31,015 bases of DNA, taken from positions 1 through 31,015 of the IMG/VR virus record IMGVR_UViG_3300001533_001970; one strand, given 5' to 3'. Numbering within the stretch: the stretch's first letter is position 1; the number at the start of each line of letters is the position of its first letter. This document shows, one piece after another, positions 2,181 to 15,449 of this stretch. Origin of the DNA: a virus. The translations under genes and the position numbers were made by a program. The notes beneath the pieces are model-generated. The model did not search any database, was not told where the DNA came from, and saw only the letters and a program-made list of their open reading frames with translations.

Positions 2181-4787
2181 ATGTTAATTTCTAAAATTAT
2201 ATCCTTAAATGCAATTGAATCTGTTGAAGATATGGCTTTACTTGAGAAGTATCGGGCTATGCATGATTTAGCTCGTGCAGGTGCTCAGAAACCTACCTTA
2301 GAAGATAAGAAGGTGTTAATTGATGGCTATGGGGAAGATGAGGGTTTATCCTTGTTCAATGACTTGGTTAAACGTTATCAAACTGCTGTAAGTAAGCGTT
2401 ATAAGGGTCGTGACCGTGGTGGTGTTTTAGAGTCGGAGCGGGAGAATTTTATTAAAAAACGTATGGACCAGTTGGAAAAAACATTAAATAATTTAGAAAA
2501 AACGGATTCATATGCTAATAATATTAATAAAATATATACTCAATTGGGGTCGGTTATATCTAAGTGGCTTTTTGAGATGGGTGAAATTTCGGCGAAAGTA
2601 TGTCTTAGTAAAGCTTCAGGGTTAGATTATTCGGATAAAGATTTTCTATTTGATGAGATAGTAAGTTCTATTGTAGAGCAAATGTCCGGGTTTTTAACTA
2701 ATAAAGGTGCTGTTGTTAGGATGTTAAAGGATGATTTGACTTCTTCTGTTGATGTAGTTGAGGAAAATTTACAAACTTCTGTTGATTTATATATGAGAGA
2801 TAAGCTAAGAGCTCCTATTAAGTCTAAAGATCCAAGAGAACTTAGTACGCAGGCTGTTCGTAATAGTTATAATATTCATATTAGAGCTTTAAAAGACAAA
2901 TTAGATGCTTATGTACCGGGGGAAACTTTTAAATATGATTTTAAAGATCATTCTTTTATTTTAGATAGTAAAAAAGCTATAAAAGATGCGATTGATATCT
3001 TAATACGTGAAAAAGAAGAGTTTGCTACATCTGATACCGGTGAAAAGAGATCTGGAGTTAAACATGGTTATGGGGTTACTATTTCTGAAACCGAGATGAG
3101 TGTTATTATAGATAATCTTTTTAAGCTATTTCAAGATGGGATTGATTTATGGTTTTCTTCTTCTAAAAGTTATGAAGATCCTTATTTTTTAAAAGACATA
3201 GGGGAAATGAGCGGTGTTTCTAAATGTGGTGTATCTTTACAAGAGTTAGTTCAAAGTATTGCTAATAAAGTTCGTTGGCGGGGTATTGATATTGGGAAAA
3301 AGATAGTTAGAGATTATACCCGTGATGCCGCTCATCTTAAGAGATTTACACCTGTAGAGGTTCAGAAAGATGATTCTGATATCGATTTTGAAACGGGTTC
3401 CGAATTTGATGTAACTGAAGATTCTTTATCCGCCCCTCCAGATGAAGTTTATAGTGATCATGAACATGATTTAAAGGCTTTATCAAATGCTTTAAGTTCT
3501 TGGGCTGGTGATAGAGATGATATAACTGAGGTTATGGGTTTAGGTGGTTATATTTTACGTGATATTGGTAATGTATATGATTTATTTATGGAACCTGTTG
3601 AAGACGGGGGTATTGGAGGTAGCTGGGATTTTGCGAAAGAAGAGATGAATATTAATTCATTTAATGATTTATTATTGTATTATGCCTGTGCGGATTTAAA
3701 TGTTGTTATTTCTGCTAAAGTATTAAAAAATAGAATGGATAAGATTAAAAAACTTTTTAAAGGATCTGAGCCATCTGAAGCATTTAAGCAATTAGAAAAA
3801 AAATTTACTTGTTCAAAATGCCAGGGCGATGGTGTGCATGACAATAAAAGATGTCCAGAGTGTATGGGATATGGTTATATTAATCCTAAATTATCTCCTA
3901 AAATTTATTCTGTTTATAGCAAGTTGCGTGATAAATTTAGTTATATAAAGAAGGACGAAGCTTTATCTAATTTGAATAATATTGAATATATTTTTTATCT
4001 TATATATAAGGAAATTCTTTTAGATTATATTGGTAATACTATGTTTGCAAATAATTTGAATTATGGTGGCAGGCAGTTAGTGTTTAATAAATTATATTCT
4101 CAAATAGCACGTGAAGGGGGTTCTCCTAAAATTCTTAAAGAAATAATAGGTGGCCCGGCTTTTGGACGTTTTTATGATGAATATATAAAGACAGAATCTA
4201 GAGAGAAGGGGTCTCGCAGTTTTTATGATACCGATGCTTTCCATTCTGTTGTTGCTAAAGATAAAAGCAAATTTAAGTCTATGGAAGATATTTTAAGTAA
4301 GTATTCTCCAGATGAGCGTGATAAATTAACTCAGCAGGTGATTGGAATGTCTCATTCTCGTTGGGAAGAATATGTTAAATATATTACGAAGAGCGATTCT
4401 TCTGTATCTAAAGGTGTTCGGAGTATATCTTCGACTAATAATACTAATTTACGTGGTGCTGTTGAATTTTTTAAGAAGTTTTTTGATTATCTTCAGGGTG
4501 TTGATAGTCATGGTTTAATTGATGAATCTTCTATTGTAGATGAGATTTTAGATAGTTATTTAAACAAAATGGAGTTTACATCTAGTGATAATATAAACGA
4601 TGTCGCTATTTCTAGTGAAGGTCGAGAATATTCTGATATGGGTCGTGACAAAAATGATAAACTGCAAAATCTATTACGAGGTCAGTTTACAAGTTCACAT
4701 ACTATGAAAGATTTATGGGTTCTCTCTGAGGATAAAAAAGCTATTTCGGTGAATTCTTCATACAAACGAATTGATAAAAAAGAATGA
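2181..4787 (+). CDS. Large protein of unknown function with a DnaJ-type CxxCxGxG zinc motif
   Basis: This 868-aa, mostly helical and charged protein is not assigned to a family. Its one clear feature lies at residues 544-565: CSKCQGDG, then CPECMGYG. This is a pair of CxxCxGxG motifs as in the DnaJ cysteine-rich domain, able to bind one zinc, but there is no J domain or HPD motif, so it is not a DnaJ co-chaperone. An acidic linker lies around residues 397-430. It is the first gene after the terminator at 2094-2134, has its own promoter-like element, and a Shine-Dalgarno GGAG precedes the start. It ends 19 nt before the next gene and sits two genes upstream of TerL. A virion or packaging-related role is possible from position alone. 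Confidence 0.85.
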   Translation: MLISKIISLNAIESVEDMALLEKYRAMHDLARAGAQKPTLEDKKVLIDGYGEDEGLSLFNDLVKRYQTAVSKRYKGRDRGGVLESERENFIKKRMDQLEKTLNNLEKTDSYANNINKIYTQLGSVISKWLFEMGEISAKVCLSKASGLDYSDKDFLFDEIVSSIVEQMSGFLTNKGAVVRMLKDDLTSSVDVVEENLQTSVDLYMRDKLRAPIKSKDPRELSTQAVRNSYNIHIRALKDKLDAYVPGETFKYDFKDHSFILDSKKAIKDAIDILIREKEEFATSDTGEKRSGVKHGYGVTISETEMSVIIDNLFKLFQDGIDLWFSSSKSYEDPYFLKDIGEMSGVSKCGVSLQELVQSIANKVRWRGIDIGKKIVRDYTRDAAHLKRFTPVEVQKDDSDIDFETGSEFDVTEDSLSAPPDEVYSDHEHDLKALSNALSSWAGDRDDITEVMGLGGYILRDIGNVYDLFMEPVEDGGIGGSWDFAKEEMNINSFNDLLLYYACADLNVVISAKVLKNRMDKIKKLFKGSEPSEAFKQLEKKFTCSKCQGDGVHDNKRCPECMGYGYINPKLSPKIYSVYSKLRDKFSYIKKDEALSNLNNIEYIFYLIYKEILLDYIGNTMFANNLNYGGRQLVFNKLYSQIAREGGSPKILKEIIGGPAFGRFYDEYIKTESREKGSRSFYDTDAFHSVVAKDKSKFKSMEDILSKYSPDERDKLTQQVIGMSHSRWEEYVKYITKSDSSVSKGVRSISSTNNTNLRGAVEFFKKFFDYLQGVDSHGLIDESSIVDEILDSYLNKMEFTSSDNINDVAISSEGREYSDMGRDKNDKLQNLLRGQFTSSHTMKDLWVLSEDKKAISVNSSYKRIDKKE

Positions 4788-5671: not shown

Positions 5672-7558
5672 GTGGCTTTAATTAATAAAACAGATATGGA
5701 TTTCGGTAATGTTTTTTCATCAAATATTTCGAATATTCTACATCAAAAGCAGCTTTTAACTGATATTTCTATATATGATTATGTTTCCAATCCTAGTTTA
5801 GGGGGTGTTAGACCTTATCCTGTACAGGCTATTATTTTAAAATTAATGTCTGGGATTGAATTAGATGGAAAAGACCGTCGTAGAATCAAGGTTCCGGATC
5901 GTTTTAATGAAAGTATAAAGTATTATTTTTCAGAAAAGCAGTTTTTAGAATTTGCTTATAATGAAGGTCGTTGTAGTATAAAAGAACAATGTGATGTTGA
6001 TAAGAGATGGCTTTTATTATGTGGTCGACGTTCGGGTAAGTCTTTTTTAGCGAGCCGTATTTTAGAATGTAAGACTGCTCAATTTCTTTATATGCAAGAC
6101 CCTTTTAAACAGTTTGGGATTGATTACGGGTCTCCAGTAAGGGCTGTATCTGTTTCTGCGTCTAGAGAGCAGGCTACAATTATTTTTAATTCGGTTTCAA
6201 ATAATGTTATAGTCAATCCGTTATTTACTAGTTTTGATGTTCAAATGACTAAGCGTTTTGCACATTTTATGCATCCTATTTTTTATGAGAAGTTCGGTAA
6301 TTTAAGTAAAAAATTAAAACCTAATGTTCAAATAGTACCTATGGCGGCTAGTTCTAGTACTGGTCGTGGGTTTGGGATGATTTGTATTATTTTTGATGAG
6401 TTAGGGTTATTTCCTACGCAACGGGGTCCGGCTTCGGCTAAAGAAGTTATTAAGGCTTTTTCTCCTTCTTTAGCAACTTTCGGAGCTTTTGGGTTTTGGT
6501 TAGTCACATCTTCACCTAGTTATTCTAATGATTCAGAATTACATCGGTTATATGATATTTCAATGAAGCCTGATAACGATGAATATGTCTCCTTTAGATT
6601 TCCTACTGTATGGATGAATCCTAATATACCTGCTACCTATTTAAAAAAAGAATTTTCTGGTAATGACCCTATTTATTATAAAGTAGAGTTTGAGGCTGAA
6701 TTTGGTAAAGGTAAGGGTGAAAAATGGTTGGATGACATTGTTGTTCGGAATATGAATAAACGTGAGCCAGAGTATCTTCCTAAAAAATATTTTTTTATGG
6801 GTATAGATTTAGCAAATAGTATGGATGCAGCCGCGTTTAGTATCGGCCACCCTTCAACGGGTTCTAAATTTATAGAAGATGAGCATATTGTTTTACGTCC
6901 AGGCCATGGTAGATTGAAAAATGTAACTTTAATTCCTAATGAATTCTTAGTTAATATTTTTATAGGGTTATTTCAAAAATATAAGCCTTTATACGTAGTA
7001 ACTGACCAACATGGGGCTTTGAGTTTATATAGTTTGATTGGAGATGTTGGAATAATTAATCGTATTCGTGATATAGCTTTTAATCCAAAAAAGAATGATA
7101 CGGTAAATGCTATTTTTTTTAATTATTTTATAAATAATTTATTAAGAAGTTATAATCCTGATTTATTAGGTTCCCTAAAAGCCTTAGTATATGAGAGATC
7201 AACTACAAATGGGTTTTTAAAGGTTTATTCTGGCGATGAGGAGCATCACCCCGATGATTCATATGATGCTTTTGCTAGAAGTCTTTTTGCTTTTTTACTT
7301 TTTTGTCAAAAAAATAAAAGTTTTTTATCTTCATTGAGATACGATTTTTCAAAAGTGGCTTTTATCAATCGTTATGCTGATGTTTTATCTCAGGAGCTTA
7401 CTAATATGAATGCCGTATCTTATTCTAAGAGTAAGCGTGAGAGATATGTAGAGTCCATGGGTGTTATTCAGAAGAGTAATATGCTAAATATGACCTTTTC
7501 AGGCAATAGGATTAGTCGACCTGGTTTAAATAAGGGTGACGTTATTTTTAGAAATTAA
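5672..7558 (+). CDS. terL: Terminase large subunit (DNA packaging ATPase/nuclease)
   Basis: This 628-aa packaging motor protein translocates DNA into the prohead and cuts concatemers. The N-terminal ATPase has Walker A CGRRSGKS (residues 117-124), Walker B IIFDE (239-243, with the catalytic Glu) and the coupling motif TSSP (279-282). The C-terminal RNase H-fold nuclease has MGIDLA (Asp379), VVTDQHG (Asp445) and HHPDDSYDAF (Asp528/529 and Asp532). All key residues are present. Translation starts at GTG 5672, 4 nt after the upstream stop, with GGAG at the end of the previous gene as ribosome-binding site. The length is normal for T4-type large terminases. It acts at the portal, encoded next. 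Confidence 0.96.
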   Translation: MALINKTDMDFGNVFSSNISNILHQKQLLTDISIYDYVSNPSLGGVRPYPVQAIILKLMSGIELDGKDRRRIKVPDRFNESIKYYFSEKQFLEFAYNEGRCSIKEQCDVDKRWLLLCGRRSGKSFLASRILECKTAQFLYMQDPFKQFGIDYGSPVRAVSVSASREQATIIFNSVSNNVIVNPLFTSFDVQMTKRFAHFMHPIFYEKFGNLSKKLKPNVQIVPMAASSSTGRGFGMICIIFDELGLFPTQRGPASAKEVIKAFSPSLATFGAFGFWLVTSSPSYSNDSELHRLYDISMKPDNDEYVSFRFPTVWMNPNIPATYLKKEFSGNDPIYYKVEFEAEFGKGKGEKWLDDIVVRNMNKREPEYLPKKYFFMGIDLANSMDAAAFSIGHPSTGSKFIEDEHIVLRPGHGRLKNVTLIPNEFLVNIFIGLFQKYKPLYVVTDQHGALSLYSLIGDVGIINRIRDIAFNPKKNDTVNAIFFNYFINNLLRSYNPDLLGSLKALVYERSTTNGFLKVYSGDEEHHPDDSYDAFARSLFAFLLFCQKNKSFLSSLRYDFSKVAFINRYADVLSQELTNMNAVSYSKSKRERYVESMGVIQKSNMLNMTFSGNRISRPGLNKGDVIFRN

Positions 7559-7586: not shown

Positions 7587-7609
7587 CTTAAATGATTCGA
7601 GGTTTTTAC

Positions 7610-9793
7610 ATGGAAAATATTTCGTGGGTAAATAATTTATTAGTAAATTCTGGTGTTATAAGTACATCTAATTACAATATGTATACGCAGTTTAATACGA
7701 CAGGTTCTTATGGAGCCGGTGTTACTATGGGGCCGATGGAAGGTAGACCTAAAACTCTATCCGATTATGGCACTGTTAATGCGTATGAGTTGTCTAAAAA
7801 AGATAAGACGCGATTAATTCGTCAGCTTTTTATGGATGATCCTGTAATCGGTGCTGCAATCGATGTAAATACTATTACCCCAATGTCTAAAACACGTCTT
7901 ACAAAGCCCTCTATCCGGGGTAAAGATGAGTTATCTACGTATATTTTAAATTTATATAAGACGATGGTGGATAAAATTAAATTGTTTAAGAATCTATTAG
8001 CGACTGTACATGAGTTTTTTGTTGCCGGTGAGGTTTATATTTGGTGTGAATGGGATGAAAGTATTTCTATGTGGAAGAGGATGGTTTTATTGCCTGTTGA
8101 GAAATGTAATCGTGAAGTAGATCCTATGACTTATGAGGAGTCTATTTTCTTAGACTGTTCTGAGCAAGAGGACTATGAAGTATATTCTGATTTCATAAAG
8201 GCTACTTACGGAAAGGGTAGTGCACAGCATATGGCTTTCGAGAAAACTCATCGAGTAAAATTACCTACTAATCCTTTTGAGGGGAGTTTTTGTAAATATA
8301 TTTCGAGAAAACCTTCTGAATTATATCCTGAAGTAAGTCCTATTTTAGGTAGATCTTTAAGGTTAGCAATTGCAATTCAGTTTTTAATGGCGATGTATGA
8401 ATCTCATATACGTAGGTCTTTACGCGCAATTGATTTATTTGTTGTTGGTGGCGGTGATGAGAATGCTATGCCTGAATGGGTTGATGATTTTGAAATGCGG
8501 TATTGGACTTCTATGTTGGGTGAAGAGGTTCCTTTAATTACTAACTATAAAGTTGACTATAATTTAATTAATTATAAAGAAAAGAAACCTGAAATTATGG
8601 AAGATATGAAGGAATTTTATAATTTAATTACCTTAGGGACCGGGATAAATATGTCAATGTTAACTGGCGAAGATTCTAATTGGAATGCTGAGAGAATTCC
8701 TATGGAAATTATAAACACTCGTTATTTTCTATTGAGAGAGGAGCTTCAGGATTTTGTTGAAAATGATTTGTTTAAACCTGTAGCGTGGGCTCAAGGGTTT
8801 TATTTACCTGGGATTAAGATAGATCGTGATTTTATACGTCATCAATTAATGGAGTCTTATTTAGGTAAACCTATAACTAAAACAAAACCTAAAGAAAAAG
8901 AAGATATTAAAGGGAAAAAAATAGATGTAAAACCGGTAAAATCGGTTAAATCTGTTGATGTATTGGACCCAGCTATCTCTAAAGTATCAGAGAAGGCGGT
9001 TCAAGAGTCTGGTATTTTTAATGAATTGGAGTATTCTGATTCGGATAAGTTTAGAGATGAACAATATGAAATTATGAAATATGCTCTAAAAGAAGATGAA
9101 ACTAATTCTGAATTTATTGAAATAATGGATAAATGGAAGGCTGAAAAAGAGAAAATCAATAAAGATAAACGTCATAAATTTACTTCATCTAAAACAGCAA
9201 TCCGTAATTTCAACGATTCGATGCCTAAAAGAAGTTATGTAGGTTATGGAAGTGTTTCTCATAAAGATATGGGTGAAGAAGGTTATAATGATCCTAATAT
9301 AGTATGGTATATTCCTCATTTAAGTTTTAAACGTGTTGCGATTGCGGATAGTGAGTCTGCTTTTACCCAGTTATTTAGTTTATTCGAGAAAGGTAAGGTG
9401 CCAATTAGCTTTATTTATGACTTATTTAATATGGATGCTGATAGTGTTGAGGCTGAATTAAAAGATAACATTTTTACCTTAAAGGATCCAAATACAAGTT
9501 TATTTTTCGAACAGCTTATGAGTACTGCCGGTACTGATGTTGCTGCCAATCCTCATATATTGAAGGTTATTCTAGAGAAGATGAATATCCCTAACGTTTT
9601 TGGTAAATTTTTAGATACTGGTGCAGAAGAAGGTGAGGGAGCGGGGCCTGGTGGCATGGGCGGTATGCCGGGTGGTGGTTTAGGTGACATGGGTGGTTTA
9701 GGTGACATGGGTGGTTTAGGTGATATGGGCGGTGAACCCGGTGGTGCCGAAGGTGGCGCTGAAGGTGGCGGTGCTCCTGAATTACCTTTTTAG
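7610..9793 (+). CDS. Portal protein (head-tail connector vertex)
   Basis: The 727-aa protein is called a portal from its sequence pattern and its place directly after terL. Near the N-terminus it has DDPVIGAAIDVNT, then a membrane-free alpha/beta core with AGEVYIWCEWDES and a helical region containing NISMLTGED-like sequence around 345-360, as in T4-type portals. It forms the ring through which TerL pumps DNA. ATG 7610 is preferred over ATG 7592 because GAGG at 7599-7602 is 7 nt before it. The protein is longer than T4 gp20 (524 aa). The extra length includes a charged segment around 425-520 and a Gly/Met-rich tail with three copies of GLGDMG. Confidence in the portal call is good; exact domain limits are estimated. 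Confidence 0.88.
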   Translation: MENISWVNNLLVNSGVISTSNYNMYTQFNTTGSYGAGVTMGPMEGRPKTLSDYGTVNAYELSKKDKTRLIRQLFMDDPVIGAAIDVNTITPMSKTRLTKPSIRGKDELSTYILNLYKTMVDKIKLFKNLLATVHEFFVAGEVYIWCEWDESISMWKRMVLLPVEKCNREVDPMTYEESIFLDCSEQEDYEVYSDFIKATYGKGSAQHMAFEKTHRVKLPTNPFEGSFCKYISRKPSELYPEVSPILGRSLRLAIAIQFLMAMYESHIRRSLRAIDLFVVGGGDENAMPEWVDDFEMRYWTSMLGEEVPLITNYKVDYNLINYKEKKPEIMEDMKEFYNLITLGTGINMSMLTGEDSNWNAERIPMEIINTRYFLLREELQDFVENDLFKPVAWAQGFYLPGIKIDRDFIRHQLMESYLGKPITKTKPKEKEDIKGKKIDVKPVKSVKSVDVLDPAISKVSEKAVQESGIFNELEYSDSDKFRDEQYEIMKYALKEDETNSEFIEIMDKWKAEKEKINKDKRHKFTSSKTAIRNFNDSMPKRSYVGYGSVSHKDMGEEGYNDPNIVWYIPHLSFKRVAIADSESAFTQLFSLFEKGKVPISFIYDLFNMDADSVEAELKDNIFTLKDPNTSLFFEQLMSTAGTDVAANPHILKVILEKMNIPNVFGKFLDTGAEEGEGAGPGGMGGMPGGGLGDMGGLGDMGGLGDMGGEPGGAEGGAEGGGAPELPF
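9677..9730 (+). repeat. Three tandem 18-nt repeats coding GLGDMG in the portal tail
   Basis: Units at 9677-9694, 9695-9712 and 9713-9730 read GGTTTAGGTGACATGGGT with only small changes in the third. They are in frame and encode Gly-Leu-Gly-Asp-Met-Gly three times. Near-identity at the DNA level points to recent slippage expansion. Flanking sequence (GGMGGMPGGG before, GGAEGG after) continues the Gly-rich character. Confidence 0.95.
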
Positions 9794-9822: not shown

Positions 9823-11010
9823 ATGAAAGTAGAAAAGAAAGTTAGTGATTCAATTGAATATTCTCTTGAAGGGATTGGCGATCAGCGTGGTAAGCGTCGT
9901 GAAAAATCTTTAAAGAGAAAAGATCCTTTAACGAAACCTAAAGGTTTAACTAAAGGACATCGTGGTCCTTATTTAGGTAAGAATCTTTCCAAGCCTTCTT
10001 ATGAAACCGATGGAATGGGCCGCCGTCGAGATCGTGCCGGTTTAGGGGCTTCTTCTGCTATAAGTATATCTTCTATTGTTGATTATCCCCATGTAGGGTT
10101 ACCCGCAGATGTATGGGTTGAGGTCAATGGTCTATATAAATTAAAACCTACGGTTAAAAAAGATATTGTAGATCGGATTGGAGATTTTTGTAAGCGTTAT
10201 CAGATATGGGGTTTTGTAAATTCGTTATTTTTAGCTAGTTCGGTGACAACTTCTTATTATACTCAGTTTTCCGATATAGATGTTAAAGTTATGTTGGATT
10301 TAGATTCGTATAAAAAGTTTTTAGATTTATCTGATAAAGATGATGAAGATTTTTTAACTACTTTAATACAATATGTTAGAAAGGACCCTACTATCGTAGA
10401 TACCAATATAAAAGGGACTAACCGTGAATTGGATGTTTATTTTAAAACGGATGAATTTTACAATGTAGATTATTCTGATGGTGTTTATGATATTTTAGAA
10501 GATAAATGGATTAAAGAACCTTTAATCGTTGATTTAGATATGCTATCATCTGAAGATATGGATTTAGAGTCTCGATTTAAACGTGGGTTTGATATGGCAA
10601 TGGAATGGGCTGAGAGCTGGGATTTGTCATTAGGTCAGATTGATAGAGAAATTAAAGAATTTTATTATATAAGTGACTTTTTAGCCTCCTTACCTGTTAA
10701 ATATTTAAAGAAATTTAAAGAAATGCTTCTTTCTAAATTAGAAACTTTAGAAAAGGCTGTTACAGAATTGGTAAAAGAGCGTGAAGATGTAGGTGATCAG
10801 CGACATGATGTTTTTGATGTAAGTACAGAGTTGCCTGATTATCATAATAGCATTAATTGGTTTCCCGAAAATATCCAGTTTAAATTGCTCCAGAGATGGG
10901 GTTATTTTGCCATTATAAGTGAGTTAAAGTCTCTTTTGAAAGGTGGTTTATCTTTAAGAGACATTGATGATATAAAAACCGCAGTTCAACGTGGTGCTGA
11001 TGTTGAATAA
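9823..11010 (+). CDS. Predicted nucleotidyltransferase (DNA polymerase beta superfamily) in the head operon
   Basis: The 395-aa protein carries a nucleotidyltransferase signature: LFLASSVTTSYYTQFSDIDV at residues 135-154, matching the family pattern hhGSx(n)DhD with Asp151 and Asp153, and NRELDVYF at 200-207 with the third acidic residue Asp204. The usual Gly-Ser is Ser-Ser here (139-140). Such enzymes transfer a nucleotide to RNA, protein or a small molecule; the substrate cannot be told. Residues 20-75 are strongly basic and could bind nucleic acid or act as a packaging tail. The C-terminal 150 residues are helical. It lies between portal and small head-assembly genes. The ATG has no visible ribosome-binding site, and no better in-frame start was found. 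The fold call is fairly strong; activity and role are unknown. Confidence 0.75.
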   Translation: MKVEKKVSDSIEYSLEGIGDQRGKRREKSLKRKDPLTKPKGLTKGHRGPYLGKNLSKPSYETDGMGRRRDRAGLGASSAISISSIVDYPHVGLPADVWVEVNGLYKLKPTVKKDIVDRIGDFCKRYQIWGFVNSLFLASSVTTSYYTQFSDIDVKVMLDLDSYKKFLDLSDKDDEDFLTTLIQYVRKDPTIVDTNIKGTNRELDVYFKTDEFYNVDYSDGVYDILEDKWIKEPLIVDLDMLSSEDMDLESRFKRGFDMAMEWAESWDLSLGQIDREIKEFYYISDFLASLPVKYLKKFKEMLLSKLETLEKAVTELVKEREDVGDQRHDVFDVSTELPDYHNSINWFPENIQFKLLQRWGYFAIISELKSLLKGGLSLRDIDDIKTAVQRGADVE

Positions 11011-11043: not shown

Positions 11044-11385
11044 ATGAAAGTACGTCGTTTATTAACAGAAAATTATGAAGATATGAAGCCTCATCAATTG
11101 GTTTCCAATTCAGATGAAGGTAGAGTTTTATCTGATATAGATGTTTTTGAGGATATTGAGGACCAGTTATATGATTTAGCATTTTTATTTATATCTAATG
11201 CGGGTATATTGGATAAAATATTTATAGATGATTATGATGATATTTCAGATCTGCGTGATACCATTTTAGCTAATATTAAAAATTCTAAAAATAAAAGTTC
11301 TTTTTTAGAGCAGAGTGATCGTATATTAGATGGTTTTATTGCTAATTACGGTACCCGTCTTTCAGGAGGTTATGGTGATAATTAA
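11044..11385 (+). CDS. Small acidic protein of unknown function (head-assembly region)
   Basis: This 113-aa protein is not recognised. It is acidic (EDIEDQLYD, IDDYDDISD) and probably helical, with no cysteine motif or membrane segment. GAGG at 11033-11036 is 7 nt before the start. Its last codons overlap the start of the next gene, indicating coupled translation. Its place between the portal and the protease resembles the small prohead-core genes of T4-type phages, but that is analogy only. Confidence 0.8.
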   Translation: MKVRRLLTENYEDMKPHQLVSNSDEGRVLSDIDVFEDIEDQLYDLAFLFISNAGILDKIFIDDYDDISDLRDTILANIKNSKNKSSFLEQSDRILDGFIANYGTRLSGGYGDN

Positions 11386-11857
11386 AGATATTCGAACTTT
11401 TAAATCTTTATCGGCTGAGCCGGGTGAAGAACTTGCGATGGGCGGAGAAGGGGCTCCTGATATTCCTGAGCTTCCTGATACTGGAGAAGAACAGACTGCT
11501 CCTGATGCCGGTGAAAAAACTTCAAAAGAACCTGCTGCTGATGATATAGGGGTTCAGCCTCCGGTCGAAGATTCTTTAGATTCTTCGGTTTCAGATGTTT
11601 CTCCTAAAGTTAAAGGTATTTTAATGCTAGCTGTTCTTATACATGATAAAGGGGCTAATGTTACTAAAAAAGATTTATTATCCTCTATAGTAAATGCTTC
11701 GGCGGATTCTAAAGAGTTGCGGTCCATGTTTTTCGGAATGGTTTTTTTAGGAACTAATTTAAATTTTTATAGTAAGTTTTTGGCAGAAATTGGTGATGTA
11801 GGTAATGATGTCGATTGGGATGTTGAAAAATTAAAGAAAACGCTTTCGGAATGGTAA
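11372..11857 (+). CDS. Acidic protein of unknown function, prohead-core candidate
   Basis: This gene encodes 161 aa if it starts at ATG 11372. AGGAGG at 11364-11369 marks the initiation region; GTG 11375, one codon later, is better spaced and equally possible. A longer in-frame opening from 11330 lies inside the previous gene and has no such signal. Residues 15-75 are a Pro/Glu/Asp-rich low-complexity stretch; residues 80-161 look helical and folded (ILMLAVLIHDKGANVTKKDL). It overlaps the upstream stop by 14 nt and ends 3 nt before the protease gene, so the three are tightly coupled. Location and acidity suggest a scaffold or prohead-core role, unproven. Confidence 0.8.
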   Translation: MVIIKDIRTFKSLSAEPGEELAMGGEGAPDIPELPDTGEEQTAPDAGEKTSKEPAADDIGVQPPVEDSLDSSVSDVSPKVKGILMLAVLIHDKGANVTKKDLLSSIVNASADSKELRSMFFGMVFLGTNLNFYSKFLAEIGDVGNDVDWDVEKLKKTLSEW

Positions 11858-11860
11858 TAT

Positions 11861-13804
11861 ATGGAGTTTTATAAAGGTAAATTTAAGAGTTATAGCTCAA
11901 ATTCACTTCGATCTAAGGTTGAGGTTATAACTCCGTCATCTATATCTACGCGGGGTTTTTTAAGTACATCTTCTAATTCGGTAGGTTATGATCCTAGGAA
12001 GTATTTATATTCACATTGTACCGCGTTGGTCGGTGCTCGAGTTGATGATAATGGTTATTATATTCTTCCGGGGTATGAGAATACTGTCAATGCGTGGGGT
12101 GATGTTGTTACAGATAGTACTTTAAAAGAATTTGTAGAAACTTTTTTAGAGTCGTATGTTTTTTTTGAGCATATTCATATAGATGAAATGATTAAAGGTA
12201 ATATTTTAGATTATTTTTTATATGAAATGGAAATATTTGGTCGTCCTTATACGTTTGTAGATGTTTTAATGGCTACCGATTTAAAGGATGCGGTTTTATG
12301 TAATTCTATTATAAATGGTGATATTAATGAGGTTAGTCAAGGTTGTTGGGCTACTAAGCTTCAATGTTCTCAATGTGGTGAGAGTTTTAAAGATTTAAAG
12401 GATATTTGTGATCATTTAAAATATAATAGTAATGAATGGTTTGTCGATCCGAAGGGAACTCCTCGTGTAACTTGTAATATTTTACAAAGTGAACCCGGTA
12501 ATAAGGAAAGTTTTTCATTTTTTGATGTGAGTTGGGTTTATCAAGGGGCTTATAGGGTTGCAGTTTTACATAAATTGTTTAATAAAAGTGATGCTGAAAG
12601 CGTGATTTCGGGTCAGAGTACTGTTCAAGATTTTGCGGTTAAAATGTTACCTCATTTATCTTCTTTAAACGTTTGGAAAGATGATGATTTAATTGAGAGT
12701 ATTGATCAGGTACATATGGGGTCTAATTTTGATGAATTTGGTACGCGGTTTATACATAAAGATAAAGAAAAGTTCGTGGCGTCTTATATGGACCTGGCGA
12801 GTTTCTTTTATACATTACAAGATGTAAAATATAAAAAAAAGGAGTATAATGGTATGGAAATTAAAGATAGAGTAAATAAATCTATTTCTATAGCTAGCAC
12901 TATTCTGACTGGAGATGCTCGTAAAGATAAGTATACTTTTAAAGATGTTGTGAAGTCTCTTGCAGTTATGCCAGATGGAAAATTAGATGAATTTTATTCG
13001 TTTTGTACCGCCAATAAGGCTGATGCCGTTGTTGGTGAGTCTGGTGATTGTGATTCACCTAAGTCTAAAGAAGCAGATTCTTCCGAGAAACCTGTAGAAG
13101 CAGATTCTGCGGATGATGAAGGTGTTATGGATGATATGAATATCGAAGCCGATGTTGATATTGAACCTGATACTGAAGAAGGTATGGATGTTGAGATGGA
13201 TGTTGAGATGGAGTCTGATGCTGAAGATGTTGGTCAAGAAATGGAAATTTCTTGGGATGATGTTAGTGAGGTTAAAAATTCTTTTAACGAAAAGATAGCT
13301 GAGTTAAGTGATGAAGGTGAATCTCCTAGTACGGAGGCTCTTTCAGAGTCTATTAATTCAATAGTAGAAGAGTTTGGCCCTAATGTAATCGCAGGTTTGA
13401 TTCTAGATGCAAGTCCTGAATGGTTTGAAGATGAAGTAGCTGCCGATGATCTTGAGGGTATGGATGATGAAATTGCTGCTGCTCTTGATGAAGTTGATAT
13501 GGGGCCCGAGGATGAAGCTGGTGAAGCTGCTCTTGGTATGGAAGAAGGTGACCTTAAGGGTGAGATTCAGAACATAACCGCATCTAAAACTACTAAGTCT
13601 GTTTCCCGTAATACTACGGATTCAGATAAGTTGAGTAAAGTTTCTCAGAGTAATGAAGGTACTCAAGCTGGTGATAGTGCTGTTAAGTCTACTTCTTCTA
13701 AGAAGAAGTTAAAGAAAATACCTTTAGTCGGAGTATCTTCGATTAAAAAAGGTTCAGATGAATATGATGAAATTTCTGATGCTATAATGGGCGAGAGATT
13801 CTAA
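11861..13804 (+). CDS. Predicted capsid maturation protease with acidic scaffold-like C-terminal region
   Basis: This is a 647-aa protein. Residues 45-190 resemble phage capsid assembly proteases: a His in YVFFEHIHID (His104 or His106), then KGNILDYFLYE, a hydrophobic strand, and EVSQGC with candidate catalytic Ser159 at the place of the SMGC motif I recall for this group. It is followed by CSQCG and CDHL (Cys169, Cys172, Cys183, His185), a likely zinc site. Residues about 395-570 are extremely acidic and low-complexity, as in scaffolds fused to proteases. The C-terminal 60 residues are basic and Ser/Lys-rich. Such proteins build the prohead and cleave scaffold and capsid proteins during maturation. 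Its place before the decoration and major capsid genes fits. The protease assignment rests on recalled motifs. Confidence 0.7.
   Translation: MEFYKGKFKSYSSNSLRSKVEVITPSSISTRGFLSTSSNSVGYDPRKYLYSHCTALVGARVDDNGYYILPGYENTVNAWGDVVTDSTLKEFVETFLESYVFFEHIHIDEMIKGNILDYFLYEMEIFGRPYTFVDVLMATDLKDAVLCNSIINGDINEVSQGCWATKLQCSQCGESFKDLKDICDHLKYNSNEWFVDPKGTPRVTCNILQSEPGNKESFSFFDVSWVYQGAYRVAVLHKLFNKSDAESVISGQSTVQDFAVKMLPHLSSLNVWKDDDLIESIDQVHMGSNFDEFGTRFIHKDKEKFVASYMDLASFFYTLQDVKYKKKEYNGMEIKDRVNKSISIASTILTGDARKDKYTFKDVVKSLAVMPDGKLDEFYSFCTANKADAVVGESGDCDSPKSKEADSSEKPVEADSADDEGVMDDMNIEADVDIEPDTEEGMDVEMDVEMESDAEDVGQEMEISWDDVSEVKNSFNEKIAELSDEGESPSTEALSESINSIVEEFGPNVIAGLILDASPEWFEDEVAADDLEGMDDEIAAALDEVDMGPEDEAGEAALGMEEGDLKGEIQNITASKTTKSVSRNTTDSDKLSKVSQSNEGTQAGDSAVKSTSSKKKLKKIPLVGVSSIKKGSDEYDEISDAIMGERF
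13187..13210 (+). repeat. Two tandem 12-nt repeats coding DVEM
   Basis: GATGTTGAGATG is exactly duplicated at 13187-13198 and 13199-13210, in frame, inside the acidic region of the predicted protease/scaffold. It is probably slippage in low-complexity coding DNA. Confidence 0.9.
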
Positions 13805-14561: not shown

Positions 14562-15449
14562 ATGCCAAAAAATTCTATGACGGTTGATAAACTTAACCGT
14601 ATTAACGGAAAAATACAGAAACTTATGAACACACCTGGCGGTCTTGTAAAAGCTCTTAATAAAATTACAAGTCCTTTGAAAACCAGACGTGATGTAGTTT
14701 CTGGTGTGCGGAAAGTATTTCAGTACGATCCGCTGACAGAAGGTGAAGTGCCTAAGTATGACACTGATCCAGATGCTTATGCTTATACTGTTCCTCATCA
14801 GGGTGGGGCTCCTATGAGACTTAATCCTATGGAAGGTAGACAGGTTGAAGCATATATGTTTGATATGATTGTATATAAGGAATTTCCAGTTTCTCAGTTA
14901 AGAAGAGCTCGTTATAAGCTTCTTAAGAGAATTGAGCAGGTTCTTAGAAATGCGATCGTTCTTCAGGAAGATACTCTTATGGTTGATGTTCTGAATGCAG
15001 TAGTTGATGATGCTCAGTATCCTTTTGATTTAACAGAACTTCAGTCTCAGGATCTGGATCCCGATGTACTTACTCGTGCTATGGGTTTCATTGAAGATTA
15101 TACAGATGCCAGTTTTGTTCTTATGAAAGCTCGTAGAGCTTCTTATGTAAGAACTTGGGGTATCGATATTTTTGCTCCTGCAAGACGTGAGGAAATCCTT
15201 AAAACCGGTGTTATCGGTTCTTTATGGAATGCTTCTCTTTATAAAAGCCGTGTATTTCCTGACAATTATGTTTATGTTACAGGTGATAAAGAACATGTAG
15301 GACGTTTACCTGAATATATGTCTTTAACTCCACTTGAAATTGTTTCTCCTAAGAAAGGAAAACAGGAAATTGGTATGGTTCAGAACATTGGTTTCTTGTG
15401 CCATAATCCTTATGCTGTAACTAGAGTTGAACTCGGAGTTACTCCGTAA
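14562..15449 (+). CDS. Major capsid protein (HK97-type fold predicted)
   Basis: The 295-aa protein is the major head subunit by sequence pattern and position. It has a helical N-terminus, then PMRLNPMEGRQVEAYMFDMI and VYKEFPVSQLRRARYKLLKR, resembling the E-loop/spine-helix part of HK97-fold capsids. The C-terminal part has GSLWNASLYKSRVFPDNYVY, then PEYMSLTPLEIVSPKK, typical of the P/A-domain end of these proteins. GGAGG at 14548-14552 is 9 nt before the ATG. Codon use differs from neighbours: Leu is mostly CTT rather than TTA and Gln appears always CAG, as expected for a very highly expressed gene. A perfect-palindrome terminator follows at 15473. An N-terminal propeptide cut by the protease is possible but not visible. 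Confidence 0.88.
   Translation: MPKNSMTVDKLNRINGKIQKLMNTPGGLVKALNKITSPLKTRRDVVSGVRKVFQYDPLTEGEVPKYDTDPDAYAYTVPHQGGAPMRLNPMEGRQVEAYMFDMIVYKEFPVSQLRRARYKLLKRIEQVLRNAIVLQEDTLMVDVLNAVVDDAQYPFDLTELQSQDLDPDVLTRAMGFIEDYTDASFVLMKARRASYVRTWGIDIFAPARREEILKTGVIGSLWNASLYKSRVFPDNYVYVTGDKEHVGRLPEYMSLTPLEIVSPKKGKQEIGMVQNIGFLCHNPYAVTRVELGVTP

What the first reader, a model, noticed from the sequence alone, without database searches (positions are those of the whole stretch)
9823..11010. Nucleotidyltransferase-fold protein inside the head-assembly operon
SDIDV and LDVYF with Ser-Ser in place of Gly-Ser give a convincing polymerase-beta-type active site, yet the gene lies between portal and prohead genes, not with replication genes. 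With a 55-residue basic N-terminal stretch it could be packaged and injected to modify a host target, or modify a virion protein. I know of no established role for such an enzyme in head assembly.
Basis: partly seen in the sequence, partly recalled or inferred. Interest (0 to 1): 0.62.

Follow-up and report, generated by a model that had tools for sequence, protein, structure and literature searches.

The report
Nucleotide-transfer enzyme in jumbo-phage head operon
Between two capsid-building genes of an uncultured giant phage sits a highly diverged member of an unstudied but widespread phage family of nucleotide-adding enzymes, in the same spot where related giant phages carry large proteins with RNA-repair and topoisomerase domains, so it may be an RNA-repair enzyme that the phage packs into its particle.

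Summary
ORF 9823-11010 (395 aa) lies between the portal gene and the prohead-protease gene. It belongs to phrog_36119, an unnamed phage family with the Pol-beta nucleotidyltransferase (NTase) core. A profile built without the window finds it at 56 bits, and the AlphaFold model contains the core. In 145 relatives that cover these columns both DxD aspartates are invariant, and a third acid follows. The window alone has G to S, H to K and E to D in the active site.

The family is not a head-assembly component as such. Relatives lie upstream of terminase-portal in 84 of 144 loci, in another head operon in 4, beside replication genes in some cyanophages and Cr30, and inside multidomain fusions.

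The unexpected result concerns the position. Phage-G-like relatives lack this family there. Their portal-to-protease slot often holds 500-1,800-aa proteins with topoisomerase IB, CCA-type NTase, 2H phosphoesterase and HAD RNA-repair domains. Across 42 records, 10 of 14 CCA-type NTases and 18 of 19 topoisomerase IB domains lie there, against 0.3 and 0.6 expected.

Best reading: a catalytically plausible NTase occupying an RNA-repair cargo slot, perhaps acting on tRNA ends. Packaging, substrate and activity are inferred. Protein nucleotidylation is the main rival.

The parts
9823..11010 (+). phrog_36119-family Pol-beta nucleotidyltransferase, 395 aa; catalytic S139/S140, D151, D153, D204
9823..10065 (+). 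codons 1-81: basic, low-confidence (probably disordered) N-terminal extension, absent in most relatives
10099..10524 (+). codons 93-234: NTase core, from the L-x(4)-W motif through SDID and LDVY to GVYxxxxDKWxxxP
10564..10989 (+). codons about 248-389: C-terminal helical domain holding the family ENxxFKxL motif (P348-L356), with a longer helical hairpin than relatives
7592..9793 (+). portal protein
   Evidence: phrog_16240 E 3.6e-9; similar to portals of LR745208 and Tunturi_5
11044..11385 (+). small ORF of unknown function, 113 aa, inside the slot
11330..11857 (+). ORF of unknown function, 175 aa, inside the slot
11861..13804 (+). head maturation protease, 647 aa, with a long acidic C-terminal part; 3' border of the slot
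   Evidence: phrog_18299 E 2.8e-10
14562..15449 (+). major head protein
   Evidence: phrog_2522 E 2.4e-28; 26-31% identical to Bacillus phage G gp27 and LR745208
5672..7558 (+). terminase large subunit
   Evidence: phrog_2 E 3.5e-21

Best explanation
The ORF encodes an active-looking template-independent Pol-beta nucleotidyltransferase of the uncharacterised phage family phrog_36119. It sits in a cargo slot between portal and prohead protease that phage-G-like jumbo phages use for RNA-repair and other enzymes. Shown here: family membership, the predicted fold, conserved metal-binding acids in relatives, and the enrichment of RNA-repair and topoisomerase domains in this slot in relatives. Inferred: it is made late with the head proteins, is enclosed in the head (the basic N-terminus could hold it to DNA or to the prohead core), enters the next host with the DNA, and adds nucleotides to RNA 3' ends, most likely tRNA ends damaged by host defence nucleases. 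It would do alone what the CCA-type NTase domain does in the relatives' multidomain proteins.
For: Family and fold: 56 bits with a 57-member profile that lacks the window; AlphaFold core pLDDT mostly above 80 for the window and mean 95.6 for the 245-aa relative L001. The matches that top Foldseek's PDB lists are nucleotidyltransferases (AAD(9), ANT, LinB, AadA, CD-NTases, poly(A) polymerases), though at weak E-values. In 145 relatives D73 and D75 are invariant and E117 is present in 144 of 145, the one exception being the window's own Asp. Slot: in 42 G-like jumbo records, 10 of 14 PolyA_pol domains, 18 of 19 Topo IB, 5 of 8 HAD_SAK_1 (a family named for RNA-repair proteins) and 9 of 17 2H phosphoesterases lie on the same strand just 3' of the portal; expected by length 0.33, 0.58, 0.22 and 0.48. 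The PolyA_pol domains resemble CCA tRNA nucleotidyltransferases. Members of this NTase family elsewhere are fused to CTP_transf_like, DUF5661, PG_binding_1, GNAT or further NTase domains, and DUF5661 also occurs in the G-like slot (L269). Phage NTases that restore lost RNA ends are established as a theme (PMC7824862).
Against: No virion proteomics and no close relative of this phage, so packaging is unproven. The window protein is very diverged (tree end branch 3.03) and is the only one with G to S, H to K and E to D at the active site. It is not homologous at profile level to CCA enzymes or RlaP. No RNA ligase or HAD was identified in the window ORFs tested, but the window is a 31-kb fragment. 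In cyanophages and Cr30 the family lies among replication or middle genes, which needs no packaging. The slot enrichment comes from related phages, so the counts are not independent.
Confidence: 0.38

Rival explanations
1. It is a protein-modifying NTase (AMPylation, UMPylation or similar) that acts on a host target or on a virion protein.
For: The best sequence match of the 57-member profile in the PDB is the AMPylating domain of DrrA (E 7e-4). MNT antitoxins, one of them solved with its mono-AMPylated HEPN partner, are among fold matches. Pol-beta NTases of polyvalent proteins were proposed to nucleotidylate proteins (PMC5512222).
Against: The DrrA match covers only the generic GS...DxD core and is weak. 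No HEPN or other partner was identified in the two neighbouring ORFs. The shared slot theme is RNA ends and DNA topology.
Confidence: 0.24
2. The position is incidental: a mobile accessory gene of phage metabolism or counter-defence that landed in the late operon, made late but not packaged.
For: The family appears in many contexts (head operons, upstream of terminase, beside replication genes) and G-like relatives lack it.
Against: Its context is strongly clustered on the family tree: 11 changes against about 50 in shuffles. 84 of 144 loci sit upstream of terminase-portal and 4 more in another head operon. The window slot recurrently carries functionally similar proteins.
Confidence: 0.2
3. 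It modifies or makes a small molecule: an aminoglycoside-NTase-like or CD-NTase-like enzyme that changes a nucleotide signal or metabolite.
For: The two-domain layout (NTase plus C-terminal helices) resembles ANT/AAD(9)/LinB, the top Foldseek matches, and CD-NTases also match.
Against: Foldseek E-values are only 2e-3 to 0.1 and the C-terminal domains do not superpose well (overall TM about 0.27). No effector gene was recognised beside it.
Confidence: 0.1
4. It is a catalytically dead NTase fold recruited as a structural or assembly protein.
For: The active-site changes G to S, H to K and E to D occur only in the window among 147 sequences; long branch.
Against: All three metal-binding carboxylates are kept as acids; E to D is conservative, and the relatives are strictly conserved.
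Confidence: 0.08

Closest known systems
phrog_36119 (unnamed PHROG family; Synechococcus phages, Caulobacter phage Cr30, Maribacter phage Molly, Lak phages, huge phages)
   Same: Same family by profile: L-x(4)-W, SDxD, E/D-x-Y, GVYS-x(5)-W-x(3)-P and ENxxFKxL motifs; same predicted fold.
   Different: The window protein is 395 aa rather than about 240 aa, has a basic N-terminal extension and a longer helical domain, and carries S-S, K and D where relatives have G-S, H and E.
CCA-adding / PolyA_pol NTases (PF01743) in portal-adjacent multidomain proteins of G-like jumbo phages
   Same: Pol-beta NTase in the same slot, 3' of the portal.
   Different: Different Pol-beta family; mostly part of 600-1,800-aa multidomain proteins rather than a single-domain protein.
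RlaP, RNA-ligase-associated Pol-beta NTase (PF10127)
   Same: Phage-encoded Pol-beta NTase, proposed to restore lost RNA nucleotides (PMC7824862).
   Different: Separate family: no Pfam match; Cr30 and Lak-A2 carry one of each at different loci.
Polyvalent proteins (PMC5512222)
   Same: Enzymes thought to be injected with phage DNA; ART and 2H domains occur there and in the slot proteins of relatives.
   Different: The window protein has a single enzymatic domain. [quoted passage not shown]
Aminoglycoside nucleotidyltransferases (AAD(9), ANT, LinB)
   Same: NTase core followed by a helical domain; top fold matches.
   Different: Weak overall superposition, 10-14% identity, no substrate-pocket evidence.

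Membership tests
phrog_36119 | Profile match over the NTase region | tested here: met
   PHROG E 7e-4; own profiles without the window: 38 bits and 56 bits, E 3e-15
phrog_36119 | GS...SDxDLH plus VExY active site, invariant in 57 relatives | tested here: inconclusive
   SD-D, the third acid and Y are kept; the window has S for G, K for H and D for E
phrog_36119 | C-terminal ENxxFKxLR motif | tested here: met
   window PENIQFKLLQR aligned; weak in HMM alone (1.5 bits)
Pol-beta nucleotidyltransferase superfamily | Predicted NTase core with DxD and a third acid on neighbouring strands | tested here: met
   AlphaFold strands 152-158 and 202-209; NTases top Foldseek; VIA-align NTases 1ylq Z 7.6, rmsd 3.0 over 88 residues, and 2rff Z 7.3, rmsd 3.8 over 102, with unrelated helical bundles scoring higher on the C-terminal part
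Pol-beta nucleotidyltransferase superfamily | Catalytic nucleotidyl transfer | not testable with these tools
   needs assay
RlaP (PF10127) | RlaP profile match | tested here: not met
   no RlaP match for the window protein at E up to 1 or for relatives at E up to 10; hhalign probability 0.1% against three RlaP proteins; both families coexist in Cr30 and Lak-A2
CCA-adding enzyme / PolyA_pol | PF01743 or NCBIfam CCA profile match | tested here: not met
   no match
Polyvalent protein | Two or more unrelated domains in one polypeptide | tested here: not met
   one recognised enzymatic domain in 395 aa
Polyvalent protein | Enclosed in the virion and injected | not testable with these tools
   no proteomics for this uncultured phage
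MNT-HEPN toxin-antitoxin | Adjacent HEPN partner | tested here: inconclusive
   neighbouring ORFs of 113 and 175 aa have no Pfam or PADLOC match

The most novel reading that the evidence does not exclude
The interval between portal and prohead protease in phage-G-like jumbo phages is a conserved cargo bay for virion-delivered RNA-repair and DNA-topology enzymes, and this phage replaced the usual multidomain machine by a single protein of an uncharacterised nucleotidyltransferase family. tRNA repair would then start from packaged enzyme before any phage gene is expressed.
Probability: 0.33. Interest if true: 0.8.

Novelty: new variant of a known kind. Interest (0 to 1): 0.52.

Why it matters
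A phage enzyme family spread over at least several hundred environmental phage loci has no assigned function. Its repeated placement beside head and packaging genes, together with a portal-adjacent slot enriched for RNA-repair domains in giant phages, suggests that counter-defence RNA repair may be carried in the particle. That can be tested by virion proteomics on cultured phages: phage G and Tunturi_5 for the slot, Cr30, S-CRM01 and Molly for the family.

Tried and rejected
(1) Close relatives of the window phage by single-sequence search with portal, head protein or the NTase: none or only distant NTases. (2) Phage G gp15, the gene after its portal, as a homologue: no similarity and no Pfam match. 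(3) RlaP: rejected. (4) CCA-adding enzyme: no profile match. (5) Defence-system protein: only E 0.014-0.023 to PADLOC PDC-S09, not followed. (6) I suspected an ATP-dependent-ligase-like domain (K-x-D-G-x-N motif) at the C-terminus of the fusions L026, L027 and L040; PDB sequence search and PHROGs gave nothing, so it is not used as evidence. (7) Virion proteomics for a family member: the main text of the paper on Maribacter phage Molly has no mention of mass spectrometry or a proteome. (8) Whole-model VIA-align is dominated by unrelated helical bundles matching the C-terminal helices, so no function is drawn from that domain. (9) Prohead-protease cleavage sites in the N-terminal extension: considered from memory only, no consensus for this protease, not claimed.

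Full report
What is there. The window is a 31-kb uncultured virus record. Its head genes run terminase (5672-7558), portal (7592-9793), the finding ORF (9823-11010), two small ORFs, head maturation protease (11861-13804), a 209-aa ORF and the major head protein (14562-15449). The head protein is 26-31% identical to those of Bacillus phage G and the 485-kb phage LR745208, and the portal resembles those of LR745208 and Tunturiibacter phage Tunturi_5. The window is therefore part of a phage related, distantly, to the G-like jumbo phages.

Family. Pfam has no significant match for the ORF and PHROGs gives only a weak match to the unnamed phrog_36119 (E 7e-4). A pattern search in IMG/VR brought 245-aa relatives that match phrog_36119 at 1e-38 and the Pfam NTase domain at up to 6e-4. 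The relation was then tested without circularity. A profile of nine relatives that lacks the window finds the window ORF at 38 bits. A profile of 57 non-redundant relatives that lacks the window finds it at 56 bits, E 3e-15, and nothing else among 16,047 open frames. The alignment covers the N-terminal L-x(4)-W motif, SDxD, E/D-x-Y, GVY-x(6)-W-x(3)-P and, weakly, a C-terminal ENxxFKxL motif.

Active site. In the relatives whose sequence covers these columns, D73 and D75 (L001 numbering) are invariant (145 of 145), and position 117 is Glu in 144 with the window's Asp as the only exception. The retrieval patterns included SD[IL]D[LV]H, which biases the DxD count, but 78 of these rows have V, F, A or Y between the two aspartates and so could not have been drawn by that pattern; E117 was in no pattern. 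The window is alone in having Ser for the Gly of the G-[SG] turn, Lys for the invariant His and Asp for Glu 117. It is a very long branch (3.03 changes per column). The metal-binding set is therefore kept, in altered surroundings.

Structure. AlphaFold gives a confident NTase core for the window (blocks of pLDDT mostly 78-96 between residues 91 and 210; strands 152-158 and 202-209 lie at the catalytic acids), a low-confidence first 81 residues and long C-terminal helices. The L001 relative is modelled at mean pLDDT 95.6. The matches that top Foldseek's PDB lists are the nucleotidyltransferases AAD(9), ANT, LinB, AadA, CD-NTases and poly(A) polymerases, at E 2e-3 to 0.1. In the viral library nine phage proteins match nearly the whole fold at E below 1e-17, one of them annotated as a nucleotidyl transferase domain protein. 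The fold is thus Pol-beta; it does not tell the substrate. The best sequence match in the PDB is the AMPylating domain of DrrA (E 7e-4), which keeps protein modification open.

Where the family lives. In 84 of 144 loci it lies upstream of the terminase-portal pair, mostly as KTSC-like ORF, NTase, four conserved unknown genes, terminase, portal (cluster sizes and gene order; tally). In 4 loci it lies between the prohead protease and the scaffold/head genes. In cyanophages and Cr30 it lies near DNA polymerase, UvsX-like, primase or Hsp20 genes. The context label needs only 11 changes on the family tree against about 50 in shuffles, so these are a few inherited arrangements and not many independent events. 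Some members are domains of 500-1,300-aa proteins with CTP_transf_like, DUF5661, Zn_protease, DUF192, GNAT, PG_binding_1 or a second NTase.

The slot. To ask whether relatives of this phage keep the gene, 127 loci around the head protein or terminase of G-like phages were fetched. None has this family nearby, nor do 42 whole records (that empty search had no positive control in its own set, but the same kind of profile search rang in six phage records). The interval between portal and protease in these relatives is often filled by large proteins. Pfam finds in them topoisomerase IB, the PolyA_pol head domain, 2H (2_5_RNA_ligase2, tRNA_lig_CPD), HAD_SAK_1 (named for 'Swiss Army Knife RNA repair proteins'), ART-PolyVal and DUF5661; NCBIfam relates the PolyA_pol parts to CCA tRNA nucleotidyltransferases. 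Mapping all matches in the 42 records gives 10 of 14 PolyA_pol, 18 of 19 topoisomerase IB, 5 of 8 HAD_SAK_1 and 9 of 17 2H domains on the portal strand within the slot (before the protease, or within 9 kb where the protease was not found), against 0.33, 0.58, 0.22 and 0.48 expected from length. These phages are related, so the counts are not independent trials, but the concentration is clear.

Mechanism. The simplest account is that this position is used for cargo enzymes made with the head, with RNA-end repair as one recurring theme, and that the window phage holds there a single-domain NTase of another Pol-beta family. Phage NTases that restore lost nucleotides at RNA ends (RlaP, CCA-adding enzymes), HAD phosphatases and 2H enzymes are described as counter-defence RNA repair in jumbo phages (PMC7824862), and 2H domains fused to MuF or portal domains were noted in polyvalent proteins (PMC5512222). 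That the window enzyme acts on RNA, that it is packaged, and that it acts early in the next infection are inferences. Protein nucleotidylation, an unpackaged late gene, a small-molecule enzyme and a dead fold remain as rivals, in that order.

Novelty. The superfamily is well known and the family exists as an unnamed PHROG, so the protein is not a new kind. It is a strongly diverged variant in a position that, within the papers found here, has not been described as a portal-adjacent RNA-repair slot. The literature search was limited to open-access text, so earlier mention cannot be excluded.

Noticed in passing
L302 15635-21166, L274 14300-19693, L289 14202-19319, L310 14820-18053, L015 10205-11728 (minus) and others: Portal-adjacent multidomain proteins in G-like jumbo phages that combine topoisomerase IB with CCA-type NTase, 2H and HAD_SAK_1 domains; strongly enriched just 3' of the portal.
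   Followed up: partly
L288 14343-18221: An intein (Intein_splicing plus LAGLIDADG_3) lies inside the PolyA_pol region of the portal-adjacent protein.
   Followed up: no
L005 3113-3508 and 3511-6342: The NTase family gene is split into two ORFs: the N-terminal half up to the third acid, then a 943-aa ORF with a BspA-type leucine-rich-repeat region followed by the C-terminal half.
   Followed up: no
L182 (Prevotella phage Lak-A2, record 442146-442865): The family member carries four in-frame TAG codons, consistent with TAG recoding in Lak phages.
   Followed up: no
L023, L024, L025, L026, L139: Fusion proteins of 1,100-1,300 aa join this NTase to CTP_transf_like, DUF5661, Zn_protease, DUF192 or a second Pol-beta NTase.
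   Followed up: partly
L125 5827-7362 and L141 411-2543: NTase fused to a peptidoglycan-binding domain (L125, Pfam; L141 looks similar by eye) at the usual place upstream of terminase.
   Followed up: no
L131 7798-8835, L066 5692-6087, L101 6604-7581, L141 5436-6695: Four conserved proteins without any PHROG match lie between the NTase and terminase in about 60-80 loci.
   Followed up: no
window 11861-13804: The prohead protease ORF is 647 aa with a long acidic C-terminal part, possibly a protease-scaffold fusion.
   Followed up: no
window 2181-4787: 868-aa ORF upstream of terminase with a CxxCxGxG...CxxCxGxG zinc-knuckle-like motif (DnaJ central domain E 0.005), function unknown.
   Followed up: no
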